This document shows positions 1 through 53,882 of a stretch of 64,000 nucleotides of DNA, one piece after another. The notes below the pieces were generated by a model. The model was given only the letters and a program-made list of their open reading frames with translations. It was not told the DNA's origin and searched no databases. The translations under genes and the position numbers were made by a program. Within the stretch, counting starts at the first letter, position 1, and each line of letters opens with the position of its first letter. Source of the stretch: Argopecten irradians (lineage: Eukaryota; Mollusca; Bivalvia; Pectinida; Pectinidae). Location: positions 21,166,362 to 21,230,361 of the forward strand of contig NC_091142.1 in NCBI RefSeq assembly GCF_041381155.1. Direction: 5' to 3'.

Positions 1-589
1 TCACAACGCTGGTAACTTTTGTTTAATGGTAACATCTTAAAAGCCCATCTTCGTTTGTGAGAATGACGATTATTGCACATATATCCATATTTCTGAATTT
101 CATCTATGTGATACAACTTTAATAGAATATGTTTCTTATCAGATGCTCTTAACCTCATAGCTGGTATTCTGTTATAAAGAGTTTGCTAAGCTATCATTTA
201 GATCTAATCTATCGTTGTGACATTTAACTCTGATGCAATATCAAGGCTTTATAGTTACTGATATTGGTATAAAAAATCGAAGCATTCAGCAAAATTATCA
301 AAGTTTTTAATACTAAAATAGAACAGATGCTTAACTATGTCACTGACCTTATTGTTTAATATTTGATCAATTTTCGGAACTGAAATTCACAAACCCACAA
401 GATGTTTCTGAATAGCTACAATTTTACAATATGCAGTTAATATGGTGTTAAAGCGAACGACATAACTCTTCTGTATAAATTACAGTCAGTATAGTATCAT
501 AATTGACCAAATCAAAGTATTAATATATGACATAGTTATTTATTTATAATATAATAATGCATGTGAATTATTAAAACCTACTGAAAACT
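1..589. other. No gene recognised (probable intron or 3' flank)
   Basis: This is AT-rich sequence with no exon pair, repeat structure or ORF that I can support. It lies downstream of the last micro-exon copy seen. Confidence 0.4.
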
Positions 590-1650
590 TTCGTCGTGTG
601 TTCAGACGAAGTAATAATATCGTCTTTTGTTGGTGTTTCTTCGTAGTTTCTTTCTGTGTTGATATCGACCCATCTGATAAAATAAATCATTTAACTGTTG
701 ATTAATAAACATAGATTATGTATCCAGTAGGATAATGATTCCCGTTTTTCTCCGATTTTTTTTGTCTTTTCTGCAAACAAATTTGTAACGAGAAGTATGA
801 AGTATACAAAACCGTAATTGTCAACAACTAAATGCGTTTTTTTTTTTTTTCCGTTTTCTATCACAATATTCTAACTTAATTAAACTGTTTAGAGCATATT
901 GTTTACAATATAAAATAGGAGGTGGTTGAATGAGATAATCATTATGGAGTTCTGCCAAAATAACATAATTTCACATTTACAACATGAACATTACTACAGA
1001 AGGTATTAAATTTTGGTTTTATTTTCAGTTAATTACATCAGCATGCTAAATATAATTTTGATACAAAACTGCGTAGATGCTTAGGAACCAAAAACGGTAG
1101 GGATTAGTTGGCATGCTAGTGTACATCAACCCGGATAAATACAAAGTATTCCAAAATGATAGCTCCATCTGGTTAAAAACCTATTTCACAGTTAACGCTA
1201 CTGCCATCAGTTTACAGGGAAATCATTGGAAATTTCAACATTTTATTTCTTAATATAATTGTTAATTCTAATAATGCAATAAAAATATCACATAATATTA
1301 CAATAATGACAATACTTGTATCTTAAGTTTCCTTTTTTAGAGGAAATTCTCATGATACAAATTATTGGATATCAAGATAATATGTACAAATGTATATTAT
1401 TTTATTTCATTATAAGAGTTACTCCCCATGTTATTTATTTATTGGTTATTGTACTAGCGTTGCATTTTTCTATACAATGCAAATCGATTTTATAGTTTAT
1501 ATTGATATAAACTTCCTCTCGGGAAATATTATATTAATTACAGAAAAAGAGGATAAATTAAAGTTTCTCATACCTGGGTCACACCTGGTGTATTTTCTTC
1601 TGTGGATTCTTCATTTTCTTGTACCCTCCTCCCCTTATTAACAAAAGAGA
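590..1650. repeat. Direct duplicate (copy 1) of a block carrying two exons
   Basis: This block aligns by eye to about 4,510-5,620: the exon-like stretch, then the ctgcaaacaa and aaccgtaattgtc segments, then the tacctgg exon-like stretch, in the same order. Here both exons are damaged. The copy of the 81-nt exon (about 596-673) has a frame-changing indel and no clear GT donor. The copy of the 51-nt exon (about 1,572-1,631) keeps GTATGAG but has a 2-nt length change and a TGA in the expected phase. Poly-T lies at about 838-850. Confidence 0.65.
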
Positions 1651-2199
1651 TCATACACCTTATGTTTCATCGTGCATGAGTGAATATGTAAAGTAACTTA
1701 CCTATCTAAGACGAACATGTGTGATACGAATTTCAGCTTATAACAAAGTTAATTCAAAACATACAACGAATTTTACCTTATTGCGAATCATCTTTAATTT
1801 TTAATGTTTCTTTCTGTCGTATTCTAAAGGAATAACAATAGATTTCTGTCATTCCACAATTAAGATTAATATCTACCATTGAAGGTAGGTATTAGCGTTC
1901 ACAGTTTACTTAGTAAGTGTAATGTCATGAAGTTTCAGAACAACTACTTCAATGTTAGTTAACACAAATGATGTCACAGTCGATAAAATCCCATCGCAAG
2001 GGAGATAGCTCCATAATGTATAAACTAACGATGGGATAGTTAACTGAATGTCTATCAGTAGAACAAATCGTTCGTTATTAGCTGTGTACATAAATTCAGG
2101 GGTCAGTGATATGTTGTAATGTTAAACCTCATTTAAGAAAGGTTCATTATATAAAAATATACATCTTATATTCATGGACAGTTAATAATTGTTTCCTAC

Positions 2200-2247
2200 C
2201 TGGATCGCCTCTTCGCTGTTTAACATTCGGCTGTCGATGTTGTCTTC
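2200..2247 (-). CDS. Micro-exon gene: 48-nt phase 1-1 exon
   Basis: The acceptor is cgttttaag and the donor CCAG|GTAGGAAAC. The exon is 48 nt. In phase 1-1 it encodes RQHRQPNVKQRRGDPG, a strongly basic segment ending in the same DPG as the exon at 5,546-5,596. Another frame is also open, so the reading depends on the phase pattern of the gene. Confidence 0.45.
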
Positions 2248-4375: not shown

Positions 4376-4518
4376 CTTCCAATTCCGGGGAAACATCTAA
4401 CTTATTCAATGTCATGTGATCAAGTTTAATCCAATCAGAACATTCTAAATGAAAGTGAGGTATAATAAATAATAATATGATATGCATGTCAAATATTTAG
4501 CGATATCTTAAAACTTAC

Positions 4519-4599
4519 CCCTGTGATCAGACAAAGAGATAGGAGCATCCTTTGTTGATGTTTCTTCATTATTTGTTTCTTGATTAATATCAGATCCAT
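4519..4599 (-). CDS. Micro-exon gene: 81-nt phase 1-1 exon
   Basis: The acceptor is tttattttaccag and the donor AGGG|GTAAGTTTT. The exon is 81 nt and phase 1-1, encoding GSDINQETNNEETSTKDA followed by PISLSDHRG. It is acidic, rich in Asn and Thr, and probably disordered. A decayed copy lies at about 596-673. Confidence 0.55.
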
Positions 4600-5545
4600 C
4601 TGGTAAAATAAATCAGTTAACTGTTAATATATCATTGTTAATTACATATCCGGTAGGATATTGATACGCGCTGTAGAAAATTCTATCTATACAATTATTT
4701 TCCTTCTTTCTGCAAACAACTTTTTAACGAGAAACTACGTATGATGTATATAAAACCGTAATTGTCTACGACTAAATGCGGTAATTTCCGTTTCCTTTCA
4801 CAATTTTCTTTATTAAACTTGTAAATATATTTAAAATTTCTGGATTGGAAATTAAGATCATAAGTGTTCTGAGTAAACATTGCAACTTTCGTTTAGGTAT
4901 ATTGTTTAGGCTAAAATCGGAGGCGGGTTATGGAGACAAACTTATGAATTCTGAAGAAATAGCAGCAATTCACATGTACAACATGAACTTTTCTACATAA
5001 GATAAATAAGGTTTTATTTTATTTTCAGTCAATTACATCATCATGCTAAATTTCACTCTGATACAAAATTGCGTAAATGCTAAGAAACCGAAAACAGTAG
5101 GGATCAGATGACATTCTAGTATAACATCAACCGGATAAATACTAAGTATTCCCAAAGTTATATATCCATCTTGTTTAAAACCTATTACAGACTAAATGCC
5201 AACACCATTAATTAGAGGGAAATCAGTGGGCATTTAAACTGTTTTATTTCTTAATATTATTGGATATATCCAAAGTACGCCATATAAATATCACAATATA
5301 TTACAATAATGTCAATATTAAGCTTATGTTTCCTTGTTTTATAGGAAATTCTCAAGATATGCTATATTTTGATATCATGATAAGTCTTGTGTCACTTTCC
5401 ATTTTGTTATTTTATGGTTCTAAGTAGCTTGAATTTTTCCATATAACATTACAGTAATATACCGAGTAGAAATTAATACAAACGTCATTTCATAAAATAG
5501 TATTTTCATTGCGGAATAAAGAGGATAAATTATGAGTATTCTTAC

Positions 5546-5596
5546 CTGGATCACTCCTGGTGTCTTCTTTTATTGATTCTTTCTTGGCTTTATCAA
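5546..5596 (-). CDS. Micro-exon gene: 51-nt phase 1-1 exon (Lys/Glu-rich)
   Basis: The donor CCAG|GTAAGAAT is strong and the acceptor is ataagggaag. The exon is 51 nt and phase 1-1, encoding DKAKKESIKEDTRSDPG. An alternative AG five bases upstream would break the phase. A decayed copy lies near 1,572. Confidence 0.5.
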
Positions 5597-5849
5597 CTTC
5601 CCTTATAAACAAAATAAATCATGCACCTTTGATCCTTGCGGAGCAAAACTTAAATATTGAAACGTGTTTAATACAATTAATTATGAAATTAATACAAATT
5701 CACTATATAACTACGAAAGCCAACATTCTTAATAAGACTAACGCCAAAATGTGTTGCAAACATCCTGTTGTGGAGGCCATTTTGTCCGACCGTTCTCGTA
5801 TCCTGGCGTCATGCAGTTTTCTTGACATCATCTCATTGTTTCTGTCATA

Positions 5850-7619
5850 ACTTCACAGTGGATTTTCTGACCGGCACAGCCAAATTGCTCCGACTAGTTA
5901 AAAATGTTTACACTAGTGGCATATGTAAACAAATTGCAAACGGGCAACGTCAGTGTGGATATTGGATAGATTATGTGATAAAGTATTGGATAGATTATGT
6001 GATAAGTATATGCTTATAGGGGTATAGAAAACCCTACCATACATATATATCAAAATGTCAATTTCACTTTGTGTTAAGATTAACCATTAATATGCAGCGT
6101 TAAAGTAGTAAAGAATGATTTTGCGGTGCTCACATAAAAAAAGTTGAAAGAGCACTCGGTATTTAGTAGGTTTCACAGAATCTGAGTTTGCTACGATAGA
6201 GAGAAAATAAGTTTTACCTGCCACTTTAACACACTTTCCCCAACGTAATTTATAATCATTTGATCTCATGATATATCTGTTGGCCAATAACCATATAAAT
6301 CACAGATTTTAAAGAACGAATAACATTTGAACAATAGAAAGTAATGAAAGTAGTTTGCACGAATGACACCTTAAAGCAACGTTGGTCTCAAATATCTCAT
6401 GCTATGGTTAACATATGGATACTGACGAAAAGAAGGACAGACACGTACACTTTCATTAATTTACTCCTTTTGGTGAAAAATGTTCATAATAATTTAAAGA
6501 TTTCAAGTTAGAAGAATGGTAATAAAAATATATATATTTCGACAATAACACTTGTATTAATGCACCTCTATCTTAAAGCTTAGCTTACAGCTTTTGTACG
6601 TTGTCTTCTAATGTTGTTCTTAGAACATCTAAAACCCAAAAACACAAAAAAAAATGCTTTCTGTACGATTGTAATACCACGCTAGTATCAGAATTAGTTT
6701 TCCTGAACATTGAATTCACATGAATGTTTAAAAATATTTATCTGAGTGAGTTATTTTTCTTTAATTATTTGCACATTTCCTCTTATTGGTCATTACCGTA
6801 GCTAAAGATTTTTTTTTAAATACTAAGCGTGTATTACTTTTCCTGTCAACAAAACATGTCGATGAAAAATAATAACGGGCCATTAGGTATAATTTGTAAA
6901 TGATGAAGATATTAAAAAGGTTATCACAGAAATCCGGCTGGTGCTTGGACAGTCCGTATGTATAGGATAGCATTGTCTCCTTTCTCCCAAAAAACAAAAC
7001 GATCAGTACCGAGACGACATATTGTAAAAGGAAATTTGAAGTCTCAAAAACTAAAAGCTTACCGTTTGTGTAGTTAATAGTAAATTTAATGTTTATTCTC
7101 ATAATGTCTGTCGTATTCTATTTCTATGGGCTGTCCATTTCATCGGGCAGAGAAATGACACTATACACGTATACCGGAAGTTTGAATATTGTTTTATGAC
7201 TTAAACTTTATTAAAATCTAGTCACCCACTTATCATCAGCAATAAGCTGTTTAAAGGAAAAGTTTACAGAGGACAGACTTTTCATTGGTGGTAACTGTGA
7301 GGAAAGTAAGAACGTTTTGTAACTAAAGAAGATTACTAATTCGTCTGCTCCTGTTTTTGATAGTGAAAACAATACAATATGTCAGCGGTGGAACATCGAA
7401 ACTGAACATATTCACAGGGTTTTAATTTTGCAGTATAAACTTAATATACATTTTTGAGCATTGAATAACAGTTAAGAAATTCAAAATGTTGAACAAGTTG
7501 ATGCTTTGAATTCGTTGATATAGCAAACATTTTCCCTATCTACTGTACAGTATAATGCAAGAAGGATTGCAAATATGCTTTTATTTCGATATGTTTATAA
7601 ATCGTTATATATAAAGTAC
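5850..7619. other. Intron between micro-exons, no further exon supported
   Basis: There are splice-like donors near 6,218 (CAG|GTAAAA) and 7,043 (ACG|GTAAGC) on the minus strand, but I found no acceptor giving an open phase 1-1 exon. A tract at about 7,313-7,400 recurs at about 32,237-32,320 (dispersed repeat). Confidence 0.4.
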
Positions 7620-7804
7620 GACAAAAGGTTTTCTGTAAGCGTAAGCGTTTCATTGATTACATAAAGAAATTATTCTTGAAGGTGCTGAAGTATTGCCACT
7701 GTATCGATATTGAAACAATTGCATCGCTGGTATATGTAAAAAAAGTATTCTTGCAATAGAGATTTGCGTTGAACAAAAAAGAGACAAAAAAGATGGAAAA
7801 GTAC

Positions 7805-7846
7805 CTCGTTCCGTTTGTAGATTTTGAAAAAGTTCCTGCAGTCCAT
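7805..7846 (-). CDS. Satellite-borne 42-nt exon, copy 1 (diverged)
   Basis: The reading is ttgtag|AT GGA CTG CAG ... CGA G|GTACTT, 42 nt, phase 1-1, encoding (D)GLQELFQNLQTER. It matches copy 2 at 36 of 42 positions, while flanking sequence is visibly less conserved. That suggests constraint on the exon. The donor is weak. Confidence 0.45.
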
Positions 7847-8606
7847 CTACAATGCAAATTATATCAAATTATTAAGTTATAAGAAACCATGTAAGATGCC
7901 AAAAAGCATACTATATTATATACCAACAAAATTGTATTAGCAATTATGATGACATTCCATCACATACATAGGACTGATGTTTAAACTCCCTTACTGGTTT
8001 AAAATATTGTCACTATTTCAATACTTCCACAGGTTTACGTACTGGCGTTTTTACAATATCAATTAATGAACAATCTTAAAAGAGTAAGCACGTTTCTTGA
8101 TCAATTTGTATATTAAGACAACGTTTATATAGATCATCGAAAATGTATAACATAACACAAGTGCAATGCCTAAAATGCTTCATAGATCCTACTACAGAAC
8201 TAAAGAAAATGAAAAAAAGGCGGAAGACTAATCGTATTCCGTTTGAAATACATGGATTTCTCTTAATGAAATATCACCAGTTTGCATAACAGTTGAGATA
8301 TTCAAGAAAATCAGTTGGTGTTTTGAATTCGATGATATAGCGAAAGTTGCCCACGACGAACTTAACCCATATATATAGGATAAGCAAGAACATTTGCTAT
8401 TATAACTCTATTTCGATATGTATACAAATCGTTTTTATGCAAAATACGAAATAATCTGTAACCGTTTTGTTCAATATGTCAAGAATGTTTTATTGAAAGA
8501 GTTGAAATATTGTCACTAAATCGATATCACAACAGTTGTATCACAAAATATGCAAAATATGTGCCATTGAACCAACAAGAGACACAGAAACGGGAAAAAA
8601 CGGTAC

Positions 8607-8648
8607 CTCGTTCCGTTTGTAGATTTTGACAACGGTCCTGAAGCTCAT
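8607..8648 (-). CDS. Satellite-borne 42-nt exon, copy 2
   Basis: The reading is ccattgtag|AT GAG CTT CAG ... CGA G|GTACCG, phase 1-1, encoding (D)ELQDRCQNLQTER. Leu at positions 3 and 10 of the 14-residue unit gives a seven-residue repeat if units are joined. Confidence 0.5.
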
Positions 8649-9451
8649 CTACAATGGATATCATATTGAATTATAATTAACAAAATATGATAACAAAATA
8701 AACCTCGAAAGATGAAATGCTAATTATAAATTATGAAACAAGAGAACGAAAAATTTGAAGACTCATCATATTAAGTTTGCTACATTCTGATTAAATTCCG
8801 TCACAAACTAAGATCTGATGCTAAAACGCTTTTATTGATTTAAAATATTGTCACTATTTCAATACTTCCACAGGTTTACGTACTGGCGTTTTACAATATA
8901 AATTGAATTAACAGCTTAAAAGAGGAAGCACGTTTCTTGATCCATTTGTATATTAAGACAACGTTTATATAGATCATCGAAAATGTATAACACATAACAC
9001 AATTACGATGCCAAAAATGCTTGATAGATCCTGTTACAGAAGTAAAGAAAATGTAAAAAAAGGCGGAAGACTGATCGTATTTCGTTTGAAATACATTGAT
9101 TTCTCTTTATGGAATGGCACCATGTTTGCATAACAGTTGAGATATTCAAAATAATCACTTGGTGTTTTGAAGTCGATGATATAGCGAAAGTTGCCCACGA
9201 CGAACTTAACCCATATATATAGGATAATGCAAGAACTGTTGCTATTATAACTCCATTTCGATATGTATACGAATCGTTTTTATGCAAAATACGAAATAAT
9301 CTGTAACCGTTTTGTTCAATATGTCAAGAATGTTTTATTGAAAGAGTTGAAATATTGTCACTAAATCGATATCACAACAGTTGAATCACAAAATATGCAA
9401 AATATGTGCCATTGAACCAACAAGAGACACAGAAACGGGAAAAAAAGGTAC

Positions 9452-9493
9452 CTCGTTCCGTTTGTAGATTTTGACAACGGTCCTGAAGCTCAT
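9452..9493 (-). CDS. Satellite-borne 42-nt exon, copy 3
   Basis: The exon is identical in sequence to copy 2 (ELQDRCQNLQTER), with an intact AG and GT on either side. Confidence 0.5.
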
Positions 9494-10288
9494 CTACAAT
9501 GGATATCATATTGAATTATAATTAACAAAATATGATAACAAAATAAACCTCGAAAGATGAACTGCTAATTATAAATTATGAAACTAGAGAACGAAAAATT
9601 TGAAGACTCATCATATTAAGTTTGCAACTTCTGATTAAATTCCGTCACAAACTAAGATCTGATGCTAAAACGCTTTTATTGGTTTAATATATTGTCACTA
9701 TTTCAATACTTCCATAGGTTTACGTACTGGCGTTTTACAATATCAATTAATTAACAGCTTAAAAGAGGAAGCACGTTTCTTGATCCATTTGTACATTAAG
9801 ACAACGTTTATATAGATCATCGAAAAATGTATAATACAACACAAGTACGATGCCAAAAATGCTTGATAGATCCTGTTACAGAAGTAAAGAAAATGCAAAA
9901 AGGCGGAAGACTGATCGTATTTCGTTAGAAATACATAGATTTCTCTTTATGGAAATGGCACCATGTTTGCATAACAGTTGAGATATTCAAAATAATCATC
10001 TTGGTGTTTTGAAGTCGATGATATAGCGAAAGTTGCCCACGACGAACTTAACCCATATATATAGGATAATGCAAGAACTGTTGCTATTATAACTCCATTT
10101 CGATATGTATACAAATCGTTTTATGCAAAATACGAAATAATCTGTAACCGTTTTGTTGAACATGTCAAGAATGTTTTATTGAAAGAGTTGAAATATTGTC
10201 ACTAAATCGATATCACAACAGTTGAATCACAAAATATGCAAAAATGTCATTGAACCAACAAGAGACACAGAAGAGGAAAAAACGGTAC

Positions 10289-10330
10289 CTCGTTCCGTTT
10301 GTAGATTTTGACAACGGTTCTGAAGCTCAT
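10289..10330 (-). CDS. Satellite-borne 42-nt exon, copy 4
   Basis: The exon is phase 1-1 and encodes ELQNRCQNLQTER, a single Asp-to-Asn change from copy 2. Splice dinucleotides are intact. Confidence 0.5.
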
Positions 10331-11129
10331 CTACAATGGATATCATATTGAATTATAATTAACAAAATATGATAACAAAATAAACCTCGAAAGATGAACT
10401 GCTAATTATAAATTATGAAACTAGAGAACGAAAAATTTGAAGACTCATCATATTAAGTTTGCAACTTCTGATTAAATTCCGTCACAAACTAAGATCTGAT
10501 GCTAAAACGCTTTTATTGGTTTAAGATATTGTCAATATTTCAATACTTCCACAGGTTTACGTACTGGCGTTTTACAATATCAATTAATTAACAGCTTAAA
10601 AGAGGAAGCACGTTTCTTGATCCATTTGTATATTAAGACAACGTTTATATAGATCATCGAAAATGTATAACATAACACAAGTACGATGCCACAAATGCTT
10701 GATAGATCCTGTTACAGAAGTAAAGAAAATGCAAAAAGGCGGAAGACTGATCGTATTCCGTTTGAAATACATAGATTTCTCTTTATGGAATGGCACCATG
10801 TTTGCATAACAGTTGAGATATTCAAAATAATCACTTGGTGTTTGAAGTCGATGATATAGCGAAAGTTGCCCACGACAAACTTAACCCATATATATAGGAT
10901 AATGCAAGAACTGTTGCTATTATAACTCCATTTCGATATGTATACAAATCGTTATTATGCAAAGATACGAAATAATCTGTAACTGTTTTGTTGAATATGT
11001 CAAGAATGTTTTATTGAAAGAGTTGAAATATTGTCACTAAATCGATATCACAACAATTGTATTTCACAAAATATGCAATATGTGCCATTGAACCAACAAG
11101 AGACGCAGAAAAGAGGAAAAAAACGGTAC

Positions 11130-11172
11130 CTCGTTCCGTTTGTAGATTTTGACAACGGTTCCTGAAGCTTAT
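11130..11172 (-). pseudogene. Satellite-borne exon, copy 5 (frameshifted, 43 nt)
   Basis: One extra base in the 5' half makes this copy 43 nt, so inclusion would shift the frame. The splice dinucleotides remain. Confidence 0.45.
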
Positions 11173-11972
11173 CTACAATGAATATTATATTGAATTTTAA
11201 TTAACAAAATATGATACCAAAATAAATCTCGAAAGATGAACTGCTTATTATAAATTATGAAACAAGAGAACGAAAAAATTGAAGACTCATCATATTAACG
11301 TTTGCTACTTCTGATTAAATTCCGTCACAAACTAAGGTCTGATGCTAAAACGCTTTTATTGGATTAAAATATTGTCACTATTTCAATACTTCCACAGGTT
11401 TACGTACTGGTGTTTTACAATATCAATTAATTAACAGCTTAAAAGAGGAAGCACGTTTCTTGATCCATTTGTGTAATAAGACAACGTTTATATAGATCAT
11501 CGAAAATGTATAATATAACACAAGTACGATGCCAAAAACGCTTGATAGATCCTGCTACAGAACTAAAGAAAATGCAGAAAGGCGGAAGACTGATCGTTAT
11601 TACGTTAGAAATACATAGATTTCTCTTCATGAAATGGCACCATGATTGGATAACAGTTGAGATATTCAAAATAATCAGTTGGCGTCTTGAATTCGATGAA
11701 ATAGCGAAAGTTGCCCACGGCGAACTTAAGACATATATATAGGATAATGCAAGAACTGTTGCTATTATAACTCCATTTCGATATGTATACAAACCGTTTT
11801 TATGCAAAATACGAAATAATATGTAACCGTTTTGTTGAATATGTCAAGAATGTTTTATTGAAAGAGTTGAAATATTGTCACTAAATCGATTATCACAACA
11901 ATTGTATTACAAAATATGCAATATGTGCCATTGAAACCAACAAGAGACACAGAAAAGGGAAAAAAAAGGTAC

Positions 11973-12014
11973 CTCGTTCCGTTTGTAGATTTTGACAACG
12001 GTTCTGAAGCTTAT
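11973..12014 (-). CDS. Satellite-borne 42-nt exon, copy 6
   Basis: The exon is phase 1-1 and encodes KLQNRCQNLQTER (Glu-to-Lys at the first full codon). Splice dinucleotides are intact. Confidence 0.45.
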
Positions 12015-12864
12015 CTACAATGAATATTATATTGTATTATAATTAACAAAATATGATACCAAAATAAACCTCGAAAGATGAACTGCTAATTATAAAATTA
12101 TGAAACAACAGAACGAAAAAATCGAAGACTCATATATATTACGTTTGCAAACGTCTGATTAAATTCCGTCACAAACTAATGTCTGATGCTAAAACGCATT
12201 TTATTGATTAAAAATAAAGTCAACTAATTCAAGACTTCCACAAGTATACATACTGGCGAATTATAATATAAAATTAATGAACAGCTTTAAACAGAGGGAA
12301 TCACGTTCGTATGATCGAGTTTGGTAAAGTTAAGACAACGATTATATTAGATCATCGAAAACTGTAAAACATAAACACAAGTACGTTGCACAAACTAGCT
12401 TTGATAGATCCTGACTTACATAAGTAAAAATAAAATGTTAATAAAGGCGGGAAGACTTGTGATCGGCATTTCCGTTTGAAATACATTGATTTTCTCATTA
12501 TTGATTTGCACCCAATGTTTGCATAAACAGTTGAGATAGTACAAAATATATCCACTTGGTGTTTTGAAGTCGTAAGAATATAGCAGAAAAGTTTCCCACC
12601 GGGACGAACGTAACCCATATATTATTAGGGTGTTAAATGTCAAGAACTTTTTGCTCATTATAACTTTCCATTTCGATATGTATACAAATCGTTATTATGC
12701 AAGATACGAAATAATCTGTAACCGTTTTGTTGAATATGTCAAGAATGTTTTATTGAAATAGTTGAAATATTGTCACTAAATCGATATCACAACAGTTGAA
12801 TCACAAAATATGCAAAATATGTCATTGAACCAACAAGAGACACGGAAGAGGAAAAAAAAGGTAC

Positions 12865-12906
12865 CTCGTTCCGTTTGTAGATTTTGACAACGGTCCTGAA
12901 GCTCAT
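12865..12906 (-). CDS. Satellite-borne 42-nt exon, copy 7
   Basis: The exon is identical to copies 2 and 3 (ELQDRCQNLQTER). The monomer just before it (12.2-12.7 kb) is riddled with small indels, yet this exon is clean. Confidence 0.5.
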
Positions 12907-13752
12907 CTACAATGAATATCATATTGAATTATAATTAACAAAATATGATAACAAAATAAACCTCGAAAGATGAAATGCTAAGTATAAATTATGAAAACAA
13001 GAGAACGAAAAATTTGAAGATTTATCATATTAAGTTTGCTACTTCTGATTAAATTCCGTCTATACAAAAACTAAGATCCTGATGCTAAAACGGCTTGGTT
13101 AATTGATTTATAAATATTGTCACTATTTCATATACTTCCAACAGGTTTTGACGGTGTACTGGAGTTTTACAATATAAATGAAATAAACAACTTAAAATAG
13201 GAAGCGAACGTTTTCTTGATCCCATTTGAATATTTAATGACAACGTTTATATACAATCATCGCAAATGTATAATTATAAACGACAAATACGATTGCCAAA
13301 AATGCTATGATAGATCCTGCAACAGGAAGTAAAAGAAAAATGTAAAAAGGCGTTAAGACTGATCTGCATATACGTTTGAAAACATACATTGATTTCCTCT
13401 TTTATGGAATGGCACCCATGTTTGCAAAACAGTTGAGATATTTCAAAATAATCACTATGGTGTTTTGAATTCGATGATAATAGCGGAAATTGCCCACCGA
13501 CGAAGACTTAACCCATATATATAGGGTAAGTGCAAGAATTTTTGCTATTATAACTCTATTTCGATATGTATACAAAACGTTTTTATGCGAAATACGAAAT
13601 AATCTGTAACCGTTTTGTTGAATATGTCAAGAATGTTTTATTGAAAGAGTTGAAATATTGTCACTAAATCGATATCACAACAGTTGTATCACAAAATATG
13701 CAAAATGTGCCATTGAACTAACAAGATACACAGAAGAGAAAAAAAACGGTAT

Positions 13753-13794
13753 CTCGTTCCGTTTGCAGATTTTGCCAACGGTTCTGAAGCTCAT
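13753..13794 (-). pseudogene. Satellite-borne exon, copy 8 (donor lost)
   Basis: The open frame encodes ELQNRWQNLQTER, but the donor GT is AT (GAG|ATACCG), so it should not be spliced in normally. Confidence 0.45.
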
Positions 13795-14587
13795 CTACAA
13801 TGAATATCATATTGAATTATAATTAACAAAATATGATACCAAAGTAACCCTCGAAAGATGAAATGCTAATTATAAATTATAAAACAAGAGAACGAAAAAT
13901 TTGAAGACTCATCATATTAAGTTTGCAACTTCTGATTAAATTCCGTCACAAACTAAGATCTGATGCTAAAACGCTTGTATTGATTTAAAATATTGTCACT
14001 ATTTCAATACTTCCACAGGTTTACGTACTGCAGTTTTACAATATAAATTAATTAACAGCTTAAAAAAGGAAGCACGTTTCTTGATCCATTTGTATATTAA
14101 GACAACGTTTATATACATCATCGAAAATATATAACATAACACAATTACGATACCAAAAATGCTTGATAGATCCTGCTACAGAATTTAAGAAAATGCAGAA
14201 AGGCGTAAGACTGATCGTATTCCGTTTGAAATGCATGGATTTCTCTTTATGAAATGGCACCATGTTTGCATTAAAGTTGAGATATTCAAAATAATCATTT
14301 GGCGTTTTGAATTTGATGATATAGCGAAAGTTGCCCACGACGAACTTAACCCATATATATAGGATAATGCAAGAATTTTTGCTATTATAACTCTATTTCG
14401 ATATGTATACAAAACGTTTTTATGCGAAATACGAAATAATCTGTAACCGTTTTGTTGAATATATCAAGAATGTTTAATTGAAAGAATTGAAATATTGTCA
14501 CTAAATCGATATCACAACAGTTGTATCACAAAATATGCAAAATGTGCCATTGAACTAACAAGATACACAGAAGAGAAAAAAGGGTAC

Positions 14588-14629
14588 CTCGTTCCGTTTG
14601 CGGATTTTGCCAACGGATCTGAAGCTCAT
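14588..14629 (-). CDS. Satellite-borne 42-nt exon, copy 9
   Basis: The exon is phase 1-1 and encodes ELQIRWQNPQTER. The second heptad Leu is replaced by Pro, which would break a helix. Splice dinucleotides are intact (GAG|GTACCC). Confidence 0.4.
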
Positions 14630-15345
14630 CTACAATGAATATTATATTGTATTATAATTAACAAAATATGATACCAAAATAAACCTCGAAAGATGAACTG
14701 CTAATTATAAATTATGAAAAAACAGAACGTAAAATTTGAAGACTCGTCATATTACGTTTGCAACTTTTGATTAAATTCCGTCACAAACTAAGGTCTGATG
14801 CTAAAACGCTTGTATTGGTTTAAATTTTTGTCACTATTTCAATACTTCCACAGGTTAACGTACTGGCGTTTTACAATATCAATTAATGAACAGCTAAAAA
14901 GAGTAAGGACGTTTCTTGATCCATTTGTATATTAAGACAACCTGTATATAGATAATCAAAATGTATGCATTAACACAAATAAGATGCCAAAAACTCTTGA
15001 AAAATGTAAAATACAGAACTAAAGAAAGCTTTGAAATACATGGATTTCTCTAAATGAAATAGTAGCACGTTTGCATAACAAGTACCTCAATTTTAATGTA
15101 TATCAAATGAAATAAGCTTAAACAAAATACGATAGGATTATTGAAACATATACTGTAATTATTTCGAAATTATCACAAATATTTCGATAGAAACGGTTAA
15201 AGAAAATGTAAAATGTAGAGGACATTTCATTTGGAGGTTTTGATGACGTACCAGTACTTCAATTAAAGTATTTAGCATATTCATATGTGTCATCAAATTA
15301 TGTATGACGTCAAAACTGTTTGAATATTTTTATACATATATGATA

Positions 15346-20113: not shown

Positions 20114-20167
20114 ACTTTTCCCACAATATCTGTATTAAGAATTGTTGATATGCTGATGATGTGTTTT
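20114..20167 (-). CDS. Micro-exon gene: 54-nt phase 1-1 exon
   Basis: The acceptor is gtttttttatttcag and the donor AAGT|GTAAGTTA is strong. The exon is 54 nt and phase 1-1. It encodes NTSSAYQQFLIQILWEK. It resembles the 51-nt exons in its acceptor region and Ser-rich start, so it may be a third diverged copy of the same unit. Confidence 0.5.
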
Positions 20168-24149: not shown

Positions 24150-25080
24150 ACAGTGTAAAAACGGGAGTGGTTTACAAATTTGCTACGTTGATCAGTCAAT
24201 TGTGTTTATTATTAATTGTCAAATATCTATCATATGACAATCCCAATTATTTATCTGTTATTTTGCGGTTCACATGTTCCAGCATTATCACATAGAACAA
24301 GAGAATGGAAATATATATTCTCTCGTTAATTGTTTCTAAAATGTGTTAAAATACTAAGACCTAAGAGAAATAACACTATTACGTCGTCATAGTAATAACG
24401 ACACGTTTGTTGATCAAAAAATATGCATACGTTAACCACCGAGAGTAATTTTAGTAATTTTGTGTTTATTTCATCTTTACAATGTTGTAGGCTAGCGAGA
24501 TAGAAGACAGTGATAATTACTCTTGTTCAGCATCTTTTTTTTTTCATTACTATTTTGTACGTTACTTAATAAATCAATAAGTAATCAATATACTTGTAAA
24601 ATAAATGTAAACATGAATAATCAACTTACTAATTGCCGACAATTTCTCTTCTTGATCTTGAGATATCAATGATGATATTACTGAAATTAAAAGACAAATA
24701 TGATAAATGTTCTACCCCGAGAGTCATATGGTTTACTTATATGCACCCTCACAGTAGCCAAAGTATTACGATCTATGAGGTATCGAAAACAACAGATACA
24801 TAATTCTTTTCTTTATCTGTGACAATCCCCCATCAGTTATACATGTATCCTTTGAATATCTGGATCGCAGTGCATATAATTCACACATGCAACCCTCTCT
24901 TTATGAAATATAGGTTTACAGTATTTGTCGACAATACGGTTAGCAAGCTGATCAAATCGATCTCTTTTAAAGATACATGTATATCAAAATATTGTAAATA
25001 ATAATGCATATAAAGAATACAGAGACGGATCCCAATCTTCATTATATGTAATAGATATCAAAAGAGTGTTATATAATCAC
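24150..25080. repeat. Diverged duplicate block related to 20.29-21.12 kb
   Basis: This partner of the 20-21 kb block carries the intact 51-nt exon at 24,630-24,680. Shared tracts include tttgaatatctggatcgcag and ccctctctttatgaaatata. Confidence 0.6.
24630..24680 (-). CDS. Micro-exon gene: 51-nt phase 1-1 exon
   Basis: The acceptor is tttaatttcag and the donor ATTA|GTAAGTTG is strong. The exon is 51 nt and phase 1-1. It encodes ISSLISQDQEEKLSAI, a polar, helix-prone segment. A diverged copy lies at about 20,466-20,516 inside a duplicated block of about 0.5 kb. Confidence 0.55.
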
Positions 25081-28949: not shown

Positions 28950-31900
28950 TCCAAAAATAAAGGATTCCTTATTAAACCTAAATGGAATTAAATGTATCTC
29001 TAACATGGATTCAAAATTTGATAGGAATAACTGAACATTTCCACAGTCCCATTAAGTATGAAAAATTAGTCTCAATTTCGGGTTTACACTGATGACAGTA
29101 AGGAGTGTCCAAAAGGCCTATTTTAAACAGATAGGAATTTGTGGTTAAAATATACTGATTAATTCTAAACTGAAGCCGCCATTGCAATTTTGTGCTTCTG
29201 GACTGATAAAAGGAATTATGTATTTTTGTCCTCAAACCAAAAATATCATCCCATTTTTTTTCTTCCTGTAGCAACAGTAGTATTCTGGCAAAGTACCTTA
29301 TAAAAATCACTTGCTCCTTTTTATGCTTAACAAATATTTCTAAGGTTTTTTGGGATGAATGGGTAATTTAAATCCTATTGGAAATTTCATCTGATGAGAA
29401 AGTGTTTTTAATGGCATTGATTTCACCTTGCTATGTAAGAAAATCTGTATGCATATTAAATTTGTTTAAACTCATATAAAGTGTAAAACACACCATTTTC
29501 ACTATTTTTTATCATATCATTCAGGATTAGAACACCTTTCTGAAACCATTCTTTATAAAAAAAACTTCTATTGTTAATTTTTATTGATTCATTATGCCAA
29601 ATAGGAAATTTAAGAACATTATCATTTTTCTTTTTAATGTTTTCAGACTTTAAAGTAAGTTTACACCAACTTTTGAAAACATTTTTACAAACCAGGTTTT
29701 TTACAGTTTTGTTGAAATTTTGAAATATAATCACTACCACAATGCGCTAATATGTTTTCATTACCAAACCTTTTAAAAATACAAGCTCCATTTTCCCTCT
29801 GATGTGTACAACCTACCTATCCATGTTAGTTTCAGGGAGTCAATAAAGGATTCTAAATGAATCATTTTAAGTCCACCCTCATGGAAACTTTTAATAGTTA
29901 TTTCTCTTTTTTATATTCTGAGATTTACCATTCAATAAAAAAAGTTATAGAGTTCTATATTCATTTTTTTAAATAGGCTATCCAGATTCGGCAATGTTAT
30001 GAATAGATGATTAAGTTGAGATATCAGAAGAGACTTGATAATATGTATTTTGCTAACAGGTGTGAAATTTCTTCTCTTTCGGGTATTTATCAAAGATTTA
30101 AGTGTAACAATTTTTTTATCATAGTTCAGTCTGAGTATTCTATGTAAATCAACACTAAAGTCTATACTTAAAACTGTAAATTTTGTTATACCCCATTGCA
30201 AATTCCATTTTAGGATATATATATATATTCACTATATGTTTTACTACCAATCCACACAACTTGCGTTTTTCTTTTGTTTATTTTCAGACCAGAGATTTTT
30301 GCATAGTTATTAAGCTCGTTCACGGATTCCTTCAAAGATATTTTCCTACCGTCTAAAATAAGAGAAGTATCATCCACATATTGGGAAAAAACTATTGGAA
30401 TACTCTCTCTATTTATACCTTTGATATTCTTATTTTTTCTAATTATAATCGCAAGTATTTCGACACATAAAATAAATATATAGGGAGCAATAGGGTCACC
30501 CTGACGACAGCCTCTTTTGACTTCAAAGAAGTTTGAAAGATTTCCACCTTGATTTATATAAGAAAGTGCATTTGAGTGCAAAACTTTTATCCATTTACAA
30601 ATATCGGGACCAAAATTAAAAAAGAGAGAACACAGTTAATAAATTTCAAACTAACAGAATCAAAAGTCTTTTCAAAATCTATAATTAAAAGCATACAGGG
30701 TATATATATATCATCCGCATATTCCATAATGTCATAGATCAATCTAGTATTTTCACCTATATACCTACCTACAATAAAACCTGTCTGATCTCTACTTATC
30801 AATTTGTTAAGAAAAAAATTCAACCTACACGCAATTGAGCCAGATTCAATTTAATACACAATATTAAGCAATGAGATTGGTCTCCAGTTTTTTTTAAAAA
30901 GTGTCTAGGTTTATCTCCTTTTGGTATACATGTTACAATTCCCTGCCTTTGAGTTATAGATGATTCTTCTTTTATAAAACCATACTTAATAGACCTAACA
31001 ATGAAGTGTCCTATTTTTCCCAAAAAACATTTTAAAAATTCTACAGTGAAGCCATGGGAACAAGGACTATTGGCATTCTTTATTTATTAGTATTAGCAGC
31101 TTCCTCAAAAGAAAAAAATTCCCTCTAACAACATTGATTCTGTCTGATTTAGTTTTGGAACATCATTATCATTATTTAAAAAAGTATCAAGATCAATATC
31201 TTTCTCTATAATTGGAATTATTTTTGAAGTATAGTTCCGATTTTCTAGGTTAAAAAACATACTTGGTAGGTTTTTCACCTTCAATCCATTTGGCTTTGGA
31301 ACGTATGGTATTACCCTTCAGTTTATGTTGCCTTATTTTTTCTAACTCTTTCTTTTTTTCATCTAATTCTTCAAAATCATGATTGTCCTCTTTTGCCTCT
31401 TAATATCTAATAGACTCTATAAGAGTATCTTCCTCAATATTTTGTTGTTTTTTCTTGAAGGATGAAAAAGATATTGTTTTCCCTCTAATTTCAAGTAGGA
31501 GTGTTTTTAAAAAAATGATCATTAATTCGAAACTGAATATCACTATCAGAAATGTTCTCAAGAGAATCAATGTTATATGCTGGAATAGCATATTGTATTT
31601 TTACTTCTGATATAAGCTTATTTATTGTGTCTAAGTATTCTCTATCATGCAAAAGCGAATTATTAAACTTCCATAAACCTTTACCTTTTTAAAATCATTA
31701 AATTTAATTGATATATTTGGTGATGAATGGTCTGTACGGTATCCGGTATCTATATTAGAGCTCTGTATATTGCCTATCATGTTTCCTGATACTAAAAAAA
31801 AGTCAAGACGTGCTTGTTTTAAGGGGTTAGATCTTCTCCATGTGTATGTTCTAGTGTCTGGATGATGTTGTCGGTATATATCAAATAATCCTAGTTCTTC

Positions 31901-32235
31901 AATCATCTCAATAATTGTATCTCTAGCTTTTCGGTTGTTTGTCTCTTTATAACTTTGATCATAGTCTAGGTCTGGGTCTAAGACTAGATTATAGTCTCCA
32001 CAAATAATATGAAACTCATTATAAAAATTGAAAACAGCATCTAAAACTTTGTTGTAAAAATCAGGCGTGTCTGTATTCGGCCCATACACTGTTATTAAAG
32101 TTATTCTTTTCCCACTAATTGATGAGTCTAGAGCTATGAAATTCCCTTCAGTATCCTTCCTTTCCTTGACAATTTTAAATTCAAAATTATTATTGAATAA
32201 GATTGCTACCCCTCTCGAGTTTGACTTAAAATTTT
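28950..32235 (-). mobile_element. 5'-truncated L1/Tx1-like LINE, decayed ORF2
   Basis: Read on the minus strand in pieces, this is a non-LTR retrotransposon ORF2. About 32,235-31,631 is the second half of an apurinic endonuclease domain (VYGPNTDTPDFY, CGDYNLVLD, RLDFFLVS, TDHSSPN). A linker follows, then reverse transcriptase at about 31,020-30,210 (RQGDPIAPYIF and the catalytic box QYVDDT). Post-RT sequence (NYDKK...TPVSKIHIIKSLLISQLN) covers 30,201-29,932, and a C-terminal region with LQFRINQYILTTNSYLFK and CHQC covers 29,456-29,011. Several frameshifts and stops separate the pieces, so it is inactive. The first part of the endonuclease is missing at about 32,235, as expected for a 5'-truncated insertion. 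The 3' end is unclear. It sits antisense to the window but in the same orientation as the host gene. Confidence 0.85.
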
Positions 32236-32392
32236 TGTAATTGAAGAAGATTACTTATTCGTCTGCTTTTGTTTTTTATTGAGAAAGAAATACTATTTGT
32301 CAGGGGTGGAGCACATTTAAAAGGTTGTTATGAATGTAATTTAGTGTACAATTTGTTGTATAACCAACGCCTAAAGTAGGAAAAATCACATA

Positions 32393-32545
32393 ATAGAAAC
32401 GTGTTAGAAAACCATTTAGAAAACCTTTTACGTACGTTACATTATGGAAACGCGTAAGAAAACATCTAGAAAACCTTTTACGTACGTCACACTATGGAAA
32501 TGTGTTATAAAAACACATGGAAAACCTTTTACGTACGTTATCCCT
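32393..32545. repeat. Tandem repeat, about 56-70 bp unit, three copies
   Basis: Three copies of the phrase gaaaaccttttacgtacgt, each preceded by a variable atggaaacgtgtta-like half, precede exon 5 of the micro-exon gene on its donor side. Confidence 0.7.
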
Positions 32546-33697: not shown

Positions 33698-34175
33698 GCG
33701 AGATGGTATTCATGATATTATGAATATTCATGAATGATTCATGAACTTTCAAGAATATTAGCAGATTGTGGTTCATGAAAAAAAGTTCATGAATATTCAT
33801 CAAATGACTCTCATGAACTATTCATGAAGTTTTATGAATCCATGAAACATTCATGATTGTTCATGATCAATGTGTCAAGAATTATCCATGAAGTTTTATG
33901 CATGACTTATATTCATTAAAATTCTTCAAAATGAATGAAGATGTTTCCCCTGCGAGATGGTATTCATGACATCTTGAATATTCATGAATGATTCATGACC
34001 TTTCAAGAATATTCGCAGTTAGTGATTCATGAACAAAAGTTCATGAATATTCATCAAATGACTCTCATGAACATCAATGTGTCAATAATTATCCAGGAAG
34101 TTTTATGCATTACTGATATTCATTAAAATATTCATGAATAATTGAAGAATATTCATGAATTTTATTCATGAATAA
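33698..34175. repeat. Duplicated TTCATGAA-rich block, about 250 bp x 2
   Basis: Both halves begin cctgcgagatggtattcatg (33,698 and 33,949) and run in parallel with small changes. They are packed with attcatgaat/ttcatgaa palindromes on both strands. Confidence 0.85.
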
Positions 34176-34622
34176 TTCATGAAAGCTCAGTAATATCATT
34201 CTGTTATAATAATGGGAATATCCGTTTGACATGTGTACAATTGACTCACGAATTAAATGATGTTACTATAACCTCATATTTAAGCAACAGTGTCTGTTTT
34301 AAGCTGTAACGTCTCGAACTTTACGGACGACAGACAGATAAACAGAAAACAGAAAGACAATTTAAGAATTTTGAAGGTCCAACTTCTTTGCACAAAATGA
34401 GATGAAGACAAGCGATGTAAAATTATTAATATTCCAAAGATTAAGCCTTAAATTTTGAAAAACATTATATGAAGACGTTAGACGGACGTTGTAAAAACAC
34501 AACCCCATACTTTCATTTGCAATTTTACAGCAATCTAAATACAACGTTGGATCGGACCTAATAAAAACGTCCTCCGGATGTTGTGTGTCCGCTGGGACCT
34601 GTATAATTTATTTTGTTTATAC

Positions 34623-34688
34623 CTGGAAGAAGACTGGTATCTGTAGAGTCAGAACGCCTTGCCTGGTAACCTCCATTTTCCTCGGCAT
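34623..34688 (-). CDS. Micro-exon gene: exon 4, 66-nt phase 1-1 unit
   Basis: The acceptor is attacag and the donor CCAG|GTATAAACA. The exon is 66 nt and phase 1-1. It encodes D-AEENGGYQARRSDSTD followed by TSLLPG. It shares length, phase and the A-x-E-N-G core with exon 3, which indicates exon duplication. The C-terminal half is rich in Ser and Thr. Confidence 0.6.
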
Positions 34689-35120: not shown

Positions 35121-35186
35121 CTGTGAGATATTTGGTTTCTGTTTTGTCGATAGACAAGCCTTGTTGAAATCCATTTTCCTTGGCAT
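35121..35186 (-). CDS. Micro-exon gene: exon 3, 66-nt phase 1-1 unit
   Basis: The acceptor is attacag and the donor CACAG|GTATAAAAG. The exon is 66 nt and phase 1-1. It encodes D-AKENGFQQGLSIDKTE followed by TKYLTG. It is paralogous to the exon at 34,623-34,688: same length, same phase, the same start ATGCC and a shared A-x-E-N-G core. Confidence 0.6.
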
Positions 35187-35597: not shown

Positions 35598-35671
35598 CTT
35601 GAGTCCTGTTTGATGCATCGTTATTGGGGTCAGTATCGTTGTCTGAGGCTTCATGTATATTTTCCTTTTCC
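35598..35671 (-). CDS. Micro-exon gene: exon 2, acidic/Asn-rich
   Basis: The acceptor is tattttcag and the donor CAAG|GTAAGTATGG is strong. The exon is 74 nt, starting with 1 nt and ending with 1 nt of split codons. It encodes EKENIHEASDNDTDP and continues NNDASNRTQG, a hydrophilic, probably disordered segment. A second open frame exists across the same stretch, but only this one links to the exons on both sides. Confidence 0.55.
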
Positions 35672-39270: not shown

Positions 39271-39287
39271 CTGTTGTTGTCATCCAT
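39271..39287 (-). CDS. Micro-exon gene: candidate first coding exon (MDDNN + split codon)
   Basis: The reading is ATG GAT GAC AAC AAC AG followed by donor GTACGG. The ATG context AACATGG has A at -3 and G at +4, a good animal start context. The exon ends in phase 2, and the next exon found (35,598-35,671) begins with the single base needed to complete the Arg codon. That phase match is the main support. A 17-nt exon could be a chance match. Confidence 0.45.
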
Positions 39288-42669: not shown

Positions 42670-44170
42670 AGACACCATACTGAATTATCACCATACTGAA
42701 TCATCACCATACTGAATCATCACCATGCTGAATCTTCACTGAATCATCACCATACCGAATCATCACCATACTGAATCATCACCATGCTGAATCTTCATCA
42801 TACTGAATCGCCACCATACTGAAATAATGGCTAAATCATCTATGAATCATCACTATGTTGAATCGTCACCATACTGAAACATTACCATATTAAATCATCT
42901 CTGAATCATCACCATGCTGAATTATCACTGATTCATCGCCATGCCGAATCATCACCATGTTGAATCATCACATTGCTGAATCATCACGATGCTGAATCAT
43001 CACCATGTTGAATCATCACATCACTGAATCATGACCATGCTGACCACGCCATACCGAATCATCACCATGCTGAATTATCACTGAATCATCACTAAATCAT
43101 CACCATGCTGAATCATCACTAAATCATCACCATGCTGAATCATCACTAAATCATCACATGCTGAATCATCACTGAATCATCACCATGCTGAATCATCACT
43201 AAATCATCACCATGCTGAATCATCACTGAATCATCACCATGCTGAATCATCACCATGTTGAATCATCACTGAATCATCACTAAATCATCACCATGCTGAA
43301 TCATCACTGAATCATCACCATGCTGAATCATCACTAAATCATCACCATACTGAATCATCACTGAATCATCACCATACTGAATCATCACTGAATCATCACC
43401 ATGCTGAATCATCACTGAATCATCACCATGCTGAATCATCACTGAATCATCACCATGCTGAATCATTACTGAATCATCATCATGCTGAATCATCAATGAA
43501 TCATCATTGAATCATCACGATGCTGAATCGTCACTGAATCATCACCATGCTGAATCGTCACTGAATCATTACGATGCTGAATCGTCACTGAATCATCATG
43601 ATGCTGAATCATCACTAAATCATCACTGAATCATCACCATGCTGAATCATCACTAAATCATCACCATGCTGAATCATCACTAAATCATCACTGAATCATC
43701 ACGATGCTGAATCGTCACTGAATCATCACCATGCTGAATCGTCACAGAATCATTACGATGCTGAATCGTCACTGAATCATCATGATGCTGAATCATCACT
43801 AAATCATCACCATGCTGAATCATCACTAAATCATCACCATGCTGAATCATCACTAAATCATCACCATGCTGAATCATCACTAAATCATCACCATGCTGAA
43901 TCATCACTGAATCATCACGATGCTGAATCGTCACTAAATCATCACCATGCTGAATCATCACTAAATCATCACCATGCTGAATCATCACTGAATCATCACG
44001 ATGCTGAATCGTCACTGAATCATCACCATGCTGAATCGTCACTGAATCATTACGATGCTGAATCGTCACTGAATCATCATGATGCTGAATTATTACTCTG
44101 CACCATGCTGAATCATCACTGATGAATTACCATACTGAATTTTCACTGTATCATCACCATACTTAGCCAT
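42670..44170. repeat. GAATCATCAC minisatellite in intron 11A (about 1.5 kb)
   Basis: Tandem units of the type ctgaatcatcaccatg and ctgaatcatcactaaatcat form higher-order blocks. The minus-strand ORFs reading MIQHGDDSV repeats are artefacts of a stop-free unit. Confidence 0.93.
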
Positions 44171-44269
44171 CACCATGTGCAAGATTATTTTGACAAAATA
44201 GATAAGATATCACACTGCAAAATATTTCTGTATTTTTTGCTACTTTTAGACTAGTATCTTTTAACATAC

Positions 44270-53765: not shown

Positions 53766-53882
53766 CACCATGTGCAAGATGATTTTGACACGTTTAATAT
53801 TTTAATGAAAATAGACAAAATATCACACCGCAAAACATTTCTGTATACTATGCTACTTTTAGGCAAGTATCTTTTAGCATAC

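What the first reader, a model, noticed from the sequence alone, without database searches (positions are those of the whole stretch)
7620..15000. A satellite array whose every monomer carries a phase-neutral 42-nt coiled-coil exon
Directly seen: an array of about 840-bp monomers in which each unit contains, on the minus strand, an AG|42 nt|GT block reading ELQDRCQNLQTER or a close variant. The block is 14 residues, exactly two heptads, with Leu seven apart. It enters and leaves in phase 1, matching the flanking micro-exons. Inference: monomer copy number could set coiled-coil length, so satellite expansion or contraction and alternative splicing would change protein length without frameshift. 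Three weak points: the GTACC donors are poor, copies 5 and 8 are broken, and copy 9 has Pro in the zipper. The diverged copy 1 keeps 36 of 42 exon positions while its flanks drift, which favours constraint.
Basis: partly seen in the sequence, partly recalled or inferred. Interest (0 to 1): 0.88.

Follow-up and report, generated by a model that had tools for sequence, protein, structure and literature searches.

The report
Exon-bearing tandem repeats in scallop WWE genes
A repeated DNA array in a bay-scallop chromosome carries one small exon-like block of a coiled-coil gene in each copy, and sister loci next door have multiplied the same block on their own, so the coil's length may depend on copy number; no RNA has been seen yet.

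Summary
Nine ~840-bp monomers each carry the minus-strand block; seven of nine have 42 nt, an open frame and AG/GT (copy 5 is 43 nt, copy 8 lacks GT). The block is a conserved exon of a small paralogous gene cluster: between genes, exon and splice sites are 71-81% identical, flanks 41-48%. A DNA-only search finds 21 relatives outside the array; the proposed frame is open in 21 of 21, the others in 3 and 5. Two sister loci have their own repeats: 541 bp with two AG/GT exons per unit, about eight units, where a 78-90% identical sister has one and a part; and ~3-kb spacing at a third. Joining predicted gene A exons (broken copies left out) gives 373 residues, ATG to stop, ending in a Pfam-significant WWE domain. 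So: an intragenic exon array in a micro-exon, coiled-coil, WWE gene. That copy number sets coil length is natural but unproven: no RNA, no allele counts, weak donors, no constraint detectable within copies 2-9. Kin: Tetrahymena LRR exon arrays, LPA KIV-2. New variant of a known kind.

The parts
39271..39287 (-). Predicted first coding exon, ATGGATGACAACAACAG|gtacgg (MDDNN, ends phase 2); a candidate giving the same peptide sits at C9:21137219-21137183 upstream of gene B
   Evidence: prediction
35598..35671 (-). Micro-exon E0, 74 nt, phase 2 to 1, acidic (EKENIHEASDNDTDPNNDASNRTQ)
   Evidence: splice sites
35121..35186 (-). Micro-exon E1, 66 nt, phase 1-1
   Evidence: lies in a segment duplicated with E2
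34623..34688 (-). Micro-exon E2, 66 nt, phase 1-1, duplicate of E1
24630..24680 (-). Candidate micro-exon E3, 51 nt, phase 1-1
   Evidence: splice sites only
20114..20167 (-). Candidate micro-exon E4, 54 nt, phase 1-1
   Evidence: splice sites only
7461..15080 (-). Tandem array, about nine ~840-bp exon+intron monomers, edges diverged
14588..14629 (-). Coiled-coil exon copy 9 (ELQIRWQNPQTER; Pro at a Leu position)
13753..13794 (-). Copy 8 (ELQNRWQNLQTER); donor GT replaced by AT
12865..12906 (-). Copy 7 ELQDRCQNLQTER
11973..12014 (-). Copy 6 KLQNRCQNLQTER
11130..11172 (-). Copy 5; 43 nt, one inserted base, would shift frame
10289..10330 (-). Copy 4 ELQNRCQNLQTER
9452..9493 (-). Copy 3 ELQDRCQNLQTER
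8607..8648 (-). Copy 2 ELQDRCQNLQTER
7805..7846 (-). Copy 1, diverged, GLQELFQNLQTER
5546..5596 (-). Micro-exon E5, 51 nt, phase 1-1; counterparts in B, C, D at weak E-values (0.028-0.25) but in the expected order and strand
4519..4599 (-). Micro-exon E6, 81 nt, phase 1-1; counterparts in B, C, D (E <= 5e-8)
2200..2247 (-). Micro-exon E5b, 48 nt, phase 1-1, basic; counterparts in B and C
546..1661 (-). Duplicate of the E5-E6 block (4472-5629) in which the E6 copy has lost a base and the strong donor: decayed exons by my reading of the alignment

Best explanation
The array lies inside a predicted ~52-kb minus-strand gene (gene A; window 39,287 down to C9:21,153,818, about 12.5 kb past the window's low end) that belongs to a small scallop gene cluster. 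The gene is built of many short exons, symmetric phase 1-1 between the first two and the last two exons: acidic and basic modules, a coiled-coil module of 42 nt, and a C-terminal WWE domain (WWE domains are reported to recognise poly-ADP-ribosylated substrates). The 42-nt exon plus its intron was duplicated head to tail, most simply by unequal exchange. This happened separately at sister loci with different units (840 bp, one exon; 541 bp, two AG/GT exons; about 3 kb). Because each exon is 42 nt and phase 1-1, adding, losing or skipping copies leaves the WWE frame intact and changes a Leu-heptad rod in 14-residue steps. SHOWN: exon family, conservation between genes, separate arrays, unit-number difference between sister loci, an open joined frame ending in WWE. 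INFERRED: transcription and splicing of the monomers; a soluble coiled-coil scaffold with an ADP-ribose-reading end whose rod length or oligomer state depends on exon number; weak donors giving partial inclusion, so that broken copies 5 and 8 can be skipped. My odds: real exon of this family 0.9; array exons at least partly used in mRNA 0.6; length has a function 0.35.
For: Genome search with 79 bases around the exon: 17 places, nine in the array, seven elsewhere on the same contig and one on contig C100; four of the eight cover only bases 1-47 or 1-48, i.e. acceptor AG, exon and donor start. DNA-only search of 264 kb plus locus D with the 42 bases of copy 2, no frame or splice condition, <=11 mismatches: 21 relatives outside the array, none on the opposite strands; followed by GT in 21 of 21, preceded by AG in 15 of 21, proposed frame open in 21 of 21, other frames in 3 and 5 of 21. 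Eight exons of genes A, B, C: identity exon 0.78, acceptor 0.81, donor 0.71, flanks 0.48 and 0.41; pN/pS 0.63 (these exons had been picked by translation, so the 16-of-16 open count of that call is biased and I rest). Order CC-E5-E6-E5b in B and C, CC-E5-E6 in D. Locus D: 541-bp unit, 8.4 copies, 95% matches; 17 AG/GT exons found by DNA pattern, 16 without a stop, one of these with one unread base. Sister B has one near-full unit and part of another. A third repeat locus. This WWE exon matched at four places, all in the cluster; joining it to the next conserved exon raises Pfam from 25.0 bits over positions 1-37 to 30.4 over 1-64 of 67. Joined gene A exons: 373 residues without a stop. One heptad column is Leu in 13 of 14.
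Against: No RNA evidence could be consulted. No protein of this gene turned up in two searches of a 5.8-billion-protein database that does hold A. irradians proteins; they covered lengths 131-1076 aa and word-sharing candidates only, with a query lacking the WWE part. Donors are weak. Two of nine exons here and one of 17 at D (in-frame stop, L011:2129) are broken. Six of the 21 relatives lack the acceptor AG: a further block in B and in at least five units of D, which looks like a decayed third exon per unit. Among copies 2-9 the exon is no better kept than 213 of 857 windows, and its changes look mostly non-synonymous; copy 1 differs from copy 2 by five non-synonymous and one synonymous change (my counts from the alignment). 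The start exon and E1-E4 rest on splice signals (and, for E1/E2, a duplication); no counterparts of E1-E4 were found in B-D. The joined frame leaves out copies 5 and 8 and was put together by me. Four WWE exons serve five loci with the coil exon (A-E), so D or E may lack its own end, or be one gene.
Confidence: 0.7

Rival explanations
1. Exon-derived satellite: the exon was real in the ancestor, but in gene A the array is now an intronic satellite whose copies are skipped, or used once, and drift neutrally.
For: Two of nine copies broken, weak donors, no constraint seen among copies 2-9 (213 of 857 windows as conserved), mostly non-synonymous changes (my reading), no protein found. A single-monomer relative on contig C100 has lost the acceptor AG, and a third block in D units lacks AG too.
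Against: Repeats at two sister loci multiply the same exon; seven of nine here stay open with AG and GT; at D 16 of 17 have no stop; copy 1 keeps the exon while its flanks drift.
Confidence: 0.3
2. Mutually exclusive exon cassette (Dscam-like, recalled): one of the nine exons is chosen per transcript, giving sequence rather than length variants.
For: Tandem duplicated exons of equal phase and length; weak donors.
Against: Copies 2, 3 and 7 encode the same 13 residues, so choice among them would change little; four of five GLEESCNK-type exons read at locus E are also identical in protein. Docking or selector elements were not looked for.
Confidence: 0.07
3. Plain non-coding satellite in which the open 42-nt block is chance.
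For: Weak donors; no RNA.
Against: The block is conserved with its splice sites in paralogous genes whose introns hardly align; the frame is open in 21 of 21 relatives found by DNA alone against 3 and 5 in the other frames.
Confidence: 0.03

Closest known systems
Tetrahymena LRR genes with 90-bp exon arrays (PMC6564038; abstract and passages read)
   Same: Tandem exon+intron units inside genes, exons of one exact length, one intron phase, unit length differing between lineages through the intron, exon number varying between inparalogues, unequal crossing over proposed.
   Different: There: ciliates, LRR domain, phase 2, thousands of genes over ten species, RNA-seq support. Here: an animal, a 14-residue coiled-coil module, phase 1, a handful of loci, no RNA.
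Human LPA kringle IV-2 VNTR (PMC6314250, PMC11462820; search listings only)
   Same: A kb-scale coding unit (5.6 kb, 1-40 units per allele in the listed abstract) whose number fixes protein size; that each unit holds whole exons is recalled.
   Different: Kringle domains, allele variation established; here only a difference between sister loci in one assembly.
CLEC4M/CD209 neck VNTR (PMC3261175, listing) and fish CD209-like necks (proteins P0003, P0006)
   Same: Repeated heptad units of variable number beside an end domain.
   Different: CLEC4M repeats lie within one exon (recalled); those are membrane lectins, while the predicted protein here has no lectin domain above cut-off and no membrane span.
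Schistosome micro-exon genes (PMC10526429; passages)
   Same: Many short exons, mostly of lengths divisible by three, with long introns.
   Different: Those encode secreted proteins with a signal peptide; here none is apparent and there is a WWE domain.
WWE-domain proteins such as RNF146 (PMC10877565, PMC11269756; listings)
   Same: Pfam PF02825 above its gathering score.
   Different: No other Pfam domain above cut-off in the predicted 373 residues. Sequence match to the RNF146 structure is weak (E 0.7).

Membership tests
Intragenic exon array (exon+intron tandem units) | Repeat unit holds whole exon(s) with both splice dinucleotides and intron | tested here: met
   7 of 9 units in A; 17 AG/GT exons at D, 16 without a stop; six further blocks at B and D lack AG
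Intragenic exon array (exon+intron tandem units) | Exon symmetric, so number can change without frameshift | tested here: met
   42 nt, phase 1-1, in 8 of 9 copies; copy 5 is 43 nt
Intragenic exon array (exon+intron tandem units) | Unit number differs between close relatives of the gene | tested here: met
   D about 8 units; sister B one near-full unit and part of another
Coding VNTR of the LPA KIV-2 kind | Unit number differs between alleles | not testable with these tools
   one assembly only
Coding VNTR of the LPA KIV-2 kind | Units present in mature mRNA and protein | not testable with these tools
   no RNA data; no protein found
WWE-domain protein | Pfam WWE above gathering score | tested here: met
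   30.4 bits against 21.1 for the two joined exons; 26.8 in the whole prediction
WWE-domain protein | Binds poly- or iso-ADP-ribose | not testable with these tools
   no assay; binding residues were not checked
Coiled coil | Heptad with hydrophobic core positions | tested here: inconclusive
   Leu in 13 of 14 at one heptad place; the other core place is W/C/F in 7 and R in 7 of 14; coiled-coil Pfam profiles match below cut-off
Schistosome-type micro-exon gene | Secreted, N-terminal signal peptide | tested here: not met
   19-residue hydropathy at most -1.88 at the N-terminus and 0.47 anywhere; no signal-peptide program was run and the start exon is itself a prediction
C-type lectin receptor neck | C-type lectin domain and membrane span | tested here: not met
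   on the predicted protein

The most novel reading that the evidence does not exclude
A length-tunable ADP-ribose reader: recurrent expansion of exon-bearing satellites in a scallop gene cluster, together with partial inclusion through weak donors, makes each locus and allele produce a ladder of WWE proteins whose coiled-coil rod grows in exact 14-residue steps, a fast-evolving way to vary spacing or oligomer size of a stress or immune scaffold.
Probability: 0.2. Interest if true: 0.78.

Novelty: new variant of a known kind. Interest (0 to 1): 0.58.

Why it matters
It gives a natural series (one and a part, about eight, and nine units at sister loci, with three unit lengths) in which satellite turnover and protein length can be compared directly, and a case where an intronic tandem repeat carries an exon in its units rather than neutral filler. 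If RNA confirms it, tandem-repeat instability would be a direct route to stepwise changes in coiled-coil length in an animal, testable by counting units per allele and reading protein size on a gel.

Tried and rejected
Lectin-receptor reading (suggested by fish CD209-like hits with 14-residue neck repeats): set aside, since the predicted protein has no lectin domain above cut-off and no membrane span. Bacterial coiled-coil hits P0016 and P0017 and a bacterial M-protein chain in PDB: read as generic heptad similarity. SLC6 tail: I considered that the micro-exons were the tail of the SLC6 transporter upstream; by my reading the transporter's own tail and stop lie at about 40.5 kb. Copies 5 and 8 as assembly errors: cannot be decided. 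The whole-monomer genome search (window 8607-9451) did not complete. A first exon scan was too strict to be of use, and a tblastn run failed to give output. A pattern script missed sites, so I repeated it by plain counting. Literature: ten searches listed no paper that I recognised as being on this gene family or on a scallop coiled-coil exon array; only the listed part of the hits was seen.

Results that did not favour me: no constraint among copies 2-9; copy 1's exon beaten by 181 of 990 windows over the whole monomer; E1-E4 without counterparts in B-D (hits shown up to E 0.5); AG-less blocks at B and D; WWE exons of A and B identical, hence uninformative on selection.
Full report
WHAT WAS CHECKED. 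Self-comparison of the window shows a tandem array from about 7,461 to 15,080; TRF with a longer period limit gives 7,940-15,000, period 837, 8.3 copies, 89% matches. Nine minus-strand blocks of the stated kind lie at 14629 down to 7805, 802-892 bp apart. Eight of nine are 42 nt, copy 5 being 43; eight of nine have GT, copy 8 having AT; copy 9 has Pro. Seven of nine have length, frame and both splice dinucleotides intact.

WHERE IT IS. The window is C9:21166362-21230361 of an 846-Mb genome in 1,508 contigs. C9 is 44,102,855 bases long, the contig length given for an Argopecten irradians glycine-transporter protein P0021, and the 24 best tblastn pieces of P0021 in the 264 kb match at 87.5-100%. 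I infer bay scallop; the tool names no organism.

CHANCE AND CONSTRAINT. Among copies 2-9 the exon has 12 departures from the majority in 344 cells against 441 in 6,856 elsewhere, but 213 of 857 windows do as well, so this is no evidence of constraint. For copy 1, 181 of 990 windows beat the exon over the whole monomer, half of which is not diverged; in the diverged half (bounds chosen by me) 7 of 668 do, all overlapping the exon. The strong evidence is between genes. A 79-base query found 17 places in the genome, eight outside the array, four of them covering only bases 1-47 or 1-48. For eight exons of genes A, B and C (28 pairs, copies 1 and 2 of A included) identity is 0.478 upstream, 0.814 in the acceptor, 0.781 in the exon, 0.707 in the donor and 0.411 downstream; pS 0.312, pN 0.197. 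In that call the frame was open in 16 of 16 exons, but those had been chosen by translation, so I repeated the test on DNA alone: with <=11 mismatches to copy 2's exon there are 21 relatives outside the array in the 264 kb and locus D, none on the opposite strands; frame open in 21 of 21, other frames in 3 and 5; GT after 21 of 21; AG before 15 of 21. The six without AG are a further block at B and in at least five units of D, probably a decayed exon.

THE FAMILY. Loci B (minus, 21.12-21.09 Mb), C (minus, 21.064-21.050 Mb) and D (plus, 20.859-20.873 Mb) carry the coil exon followed by counterparts of E5 and E6 (and E5b in B and C) in the same order and strand; the E5 matches are weak alone (E 0.028-0.25), E6 strong. 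E6 has pN/pS 0.21-0.56 in five of six pairs; the sixth, B-D, has no synonymous change. Further down, a larger exon scores as a WWE domain (25.0 bits, cut-off 21.1). A search with it matched four places in the genome, three minus beside A, B, C and one plus at 20,921,695 (the tool scores only its best candidates, and other, more distant WWE genes would not show). A second exon, identical in A, B and C and two bases different at the plus copy, follows each. Joined, the two score 30.4 bits over positions 1-64 of 67 and the frame then stops: the WWE domain is C-terminal. The WWE exon has pN/pS 0.40 between A and C; A and B are identical there. Joining the predicted gene A exons with the seven usable array exons gives 373 residues without a stop; of Pfam families only WWE passes its cut-off, with coiled-coil profiles below cut-off over the array part; hydropathy suggests no membrane span or signal peptide. 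Other possible exons (for example near C9:21163784 and 21162537) were left out, so the true protein may differ.

SEPARATE ARRAYS. At D the unit is 541 bp, 8.4 copies, 95% matches, with two 42-nt AG/GT coil exons per unit (KLEERYQNLRTER type, and EEHERRQKLQKKY type with gtaagt donors): 17 exons found by pattern, 16 without a stop, one of these containing the single base I had not fetched. B and D are 87-90% identical over the longer blocks and 78-82% over two shorter ones, but B has one near-full unit (504 of 541 bases) and 322 bases of another. Units within D are 94-96% like one of them, so the growth most simply follows the B-D split, gene conversion aside. A third locus (E, plus, 20.890-20.900 Mb) shows nine hits to the D unit. 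I read about 4.4 kb there: six blocks were recognised, five GLEESCNK-type exons with gtatgt donors and one GQQESCKNLKTER with gttcat; three hits gave no recognisable block; two series of hits are spaced about 2.9-3.6 kb. That E is a regular tandem repeat was not tested. Contig C100 holds a relative of the 840-bp monomer at about 79% identity whose exon lacks the acceptor AG.

HOW IT MOST LIKELY WORKS. Shown: a phase-1-1, 42-nt module; Leu at one heptad place in 13 of 14 heptads; repeated, separate amplification. Inferred: unequal exchange between monomers adds or removes 14-residue steps in a rod between a disordered-looking N-terminal part and a C-terminal WWE domain. Weak donors, also seen in exons of B and D (gtacct), would let the cell skip broken copies. 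WWE domains are said to recognise poly-ADP-ribosylated substrates (abstract in the listing); that is untested here.

AGAINST. No transcript was seen; two protein searches found no product of this gene, though A. irradians proteins are in that database. Five coil loci share four WWE ends. The arrays hold broken copies. Constraint between genes shows that the exon was selected in the family, not that each monomer is used today. The other core place of the heptad alternates with Arg, so how firm the coil is stays open.

COMPARISON. [quoted passage not shown] This case differs in module (coiled coil plus WWE), phase, lineage, and in offering different unit types within one cluster. None of my ten literature searches listed a paper that I recognised as on it. 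I call it a new variant of a known kind.

Noticed in passing
window 62249-40520, minus: Two tandem SLC6 (glycine-transporter-like) gene copies about 9.6 kb apart; the first encodes an N-terminal run of about nineteen 21-bp (7-residue) repeats (DTSGNVM type) in frame before TM1.
   Followed up: partly
C9:21148649-21138503, minus: A further SLC6 copy between gene A's end and gene B's start, so the cluster looks like a repeated SLC6 plus WWE-gene unit.
   Followed up: partly
window 42673-44181 and 53379-53768: Tandem repeats of 16/27/54-bp CTGAATCATCACCATG-like units inside both SLC6 copies, about 1.5 kb in one and 0.4 kb in the other.
   Followed up: no
window 30213-32254, minus: Remains of a LINE with endonuclease and reverse transcriptase similarity (Pfam PF03372, PF00078) within a predicted gene A intron.
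   Followed up: no
C9:21162956-21162909, 21164771-21164724, 21168608-21168561, minus: Basic 48-nt phase 1-1 exons (KQPRK..., KQHRH..., RQHRQ...) look like another internally duplicated exon class; E6-like acidic exons look like a third.
   Followed up: partly
L011:2129-2170 (+): One type-2 coil exon in the 541-bp array has an in-frame stop.
   Followed up: no
locus D positions 9616, 11238, 11777, 12864, 13403 (L010+N+L011 numbering) and C9:21103654: A third coil-like 42-nt block, frame open and GT kept but AT instead of AG before it.
   Followed up: no
C9:21022628-21028025, plus: Long open stretches resembling a retroelement polyprotein; seen only in an exon scan, not examined.
   Followed up: no
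window 32388-32540 and 33707-34184: Short tandem repeats of about 51 bp and of ATTCATGAA-type units.
   Followed up: no
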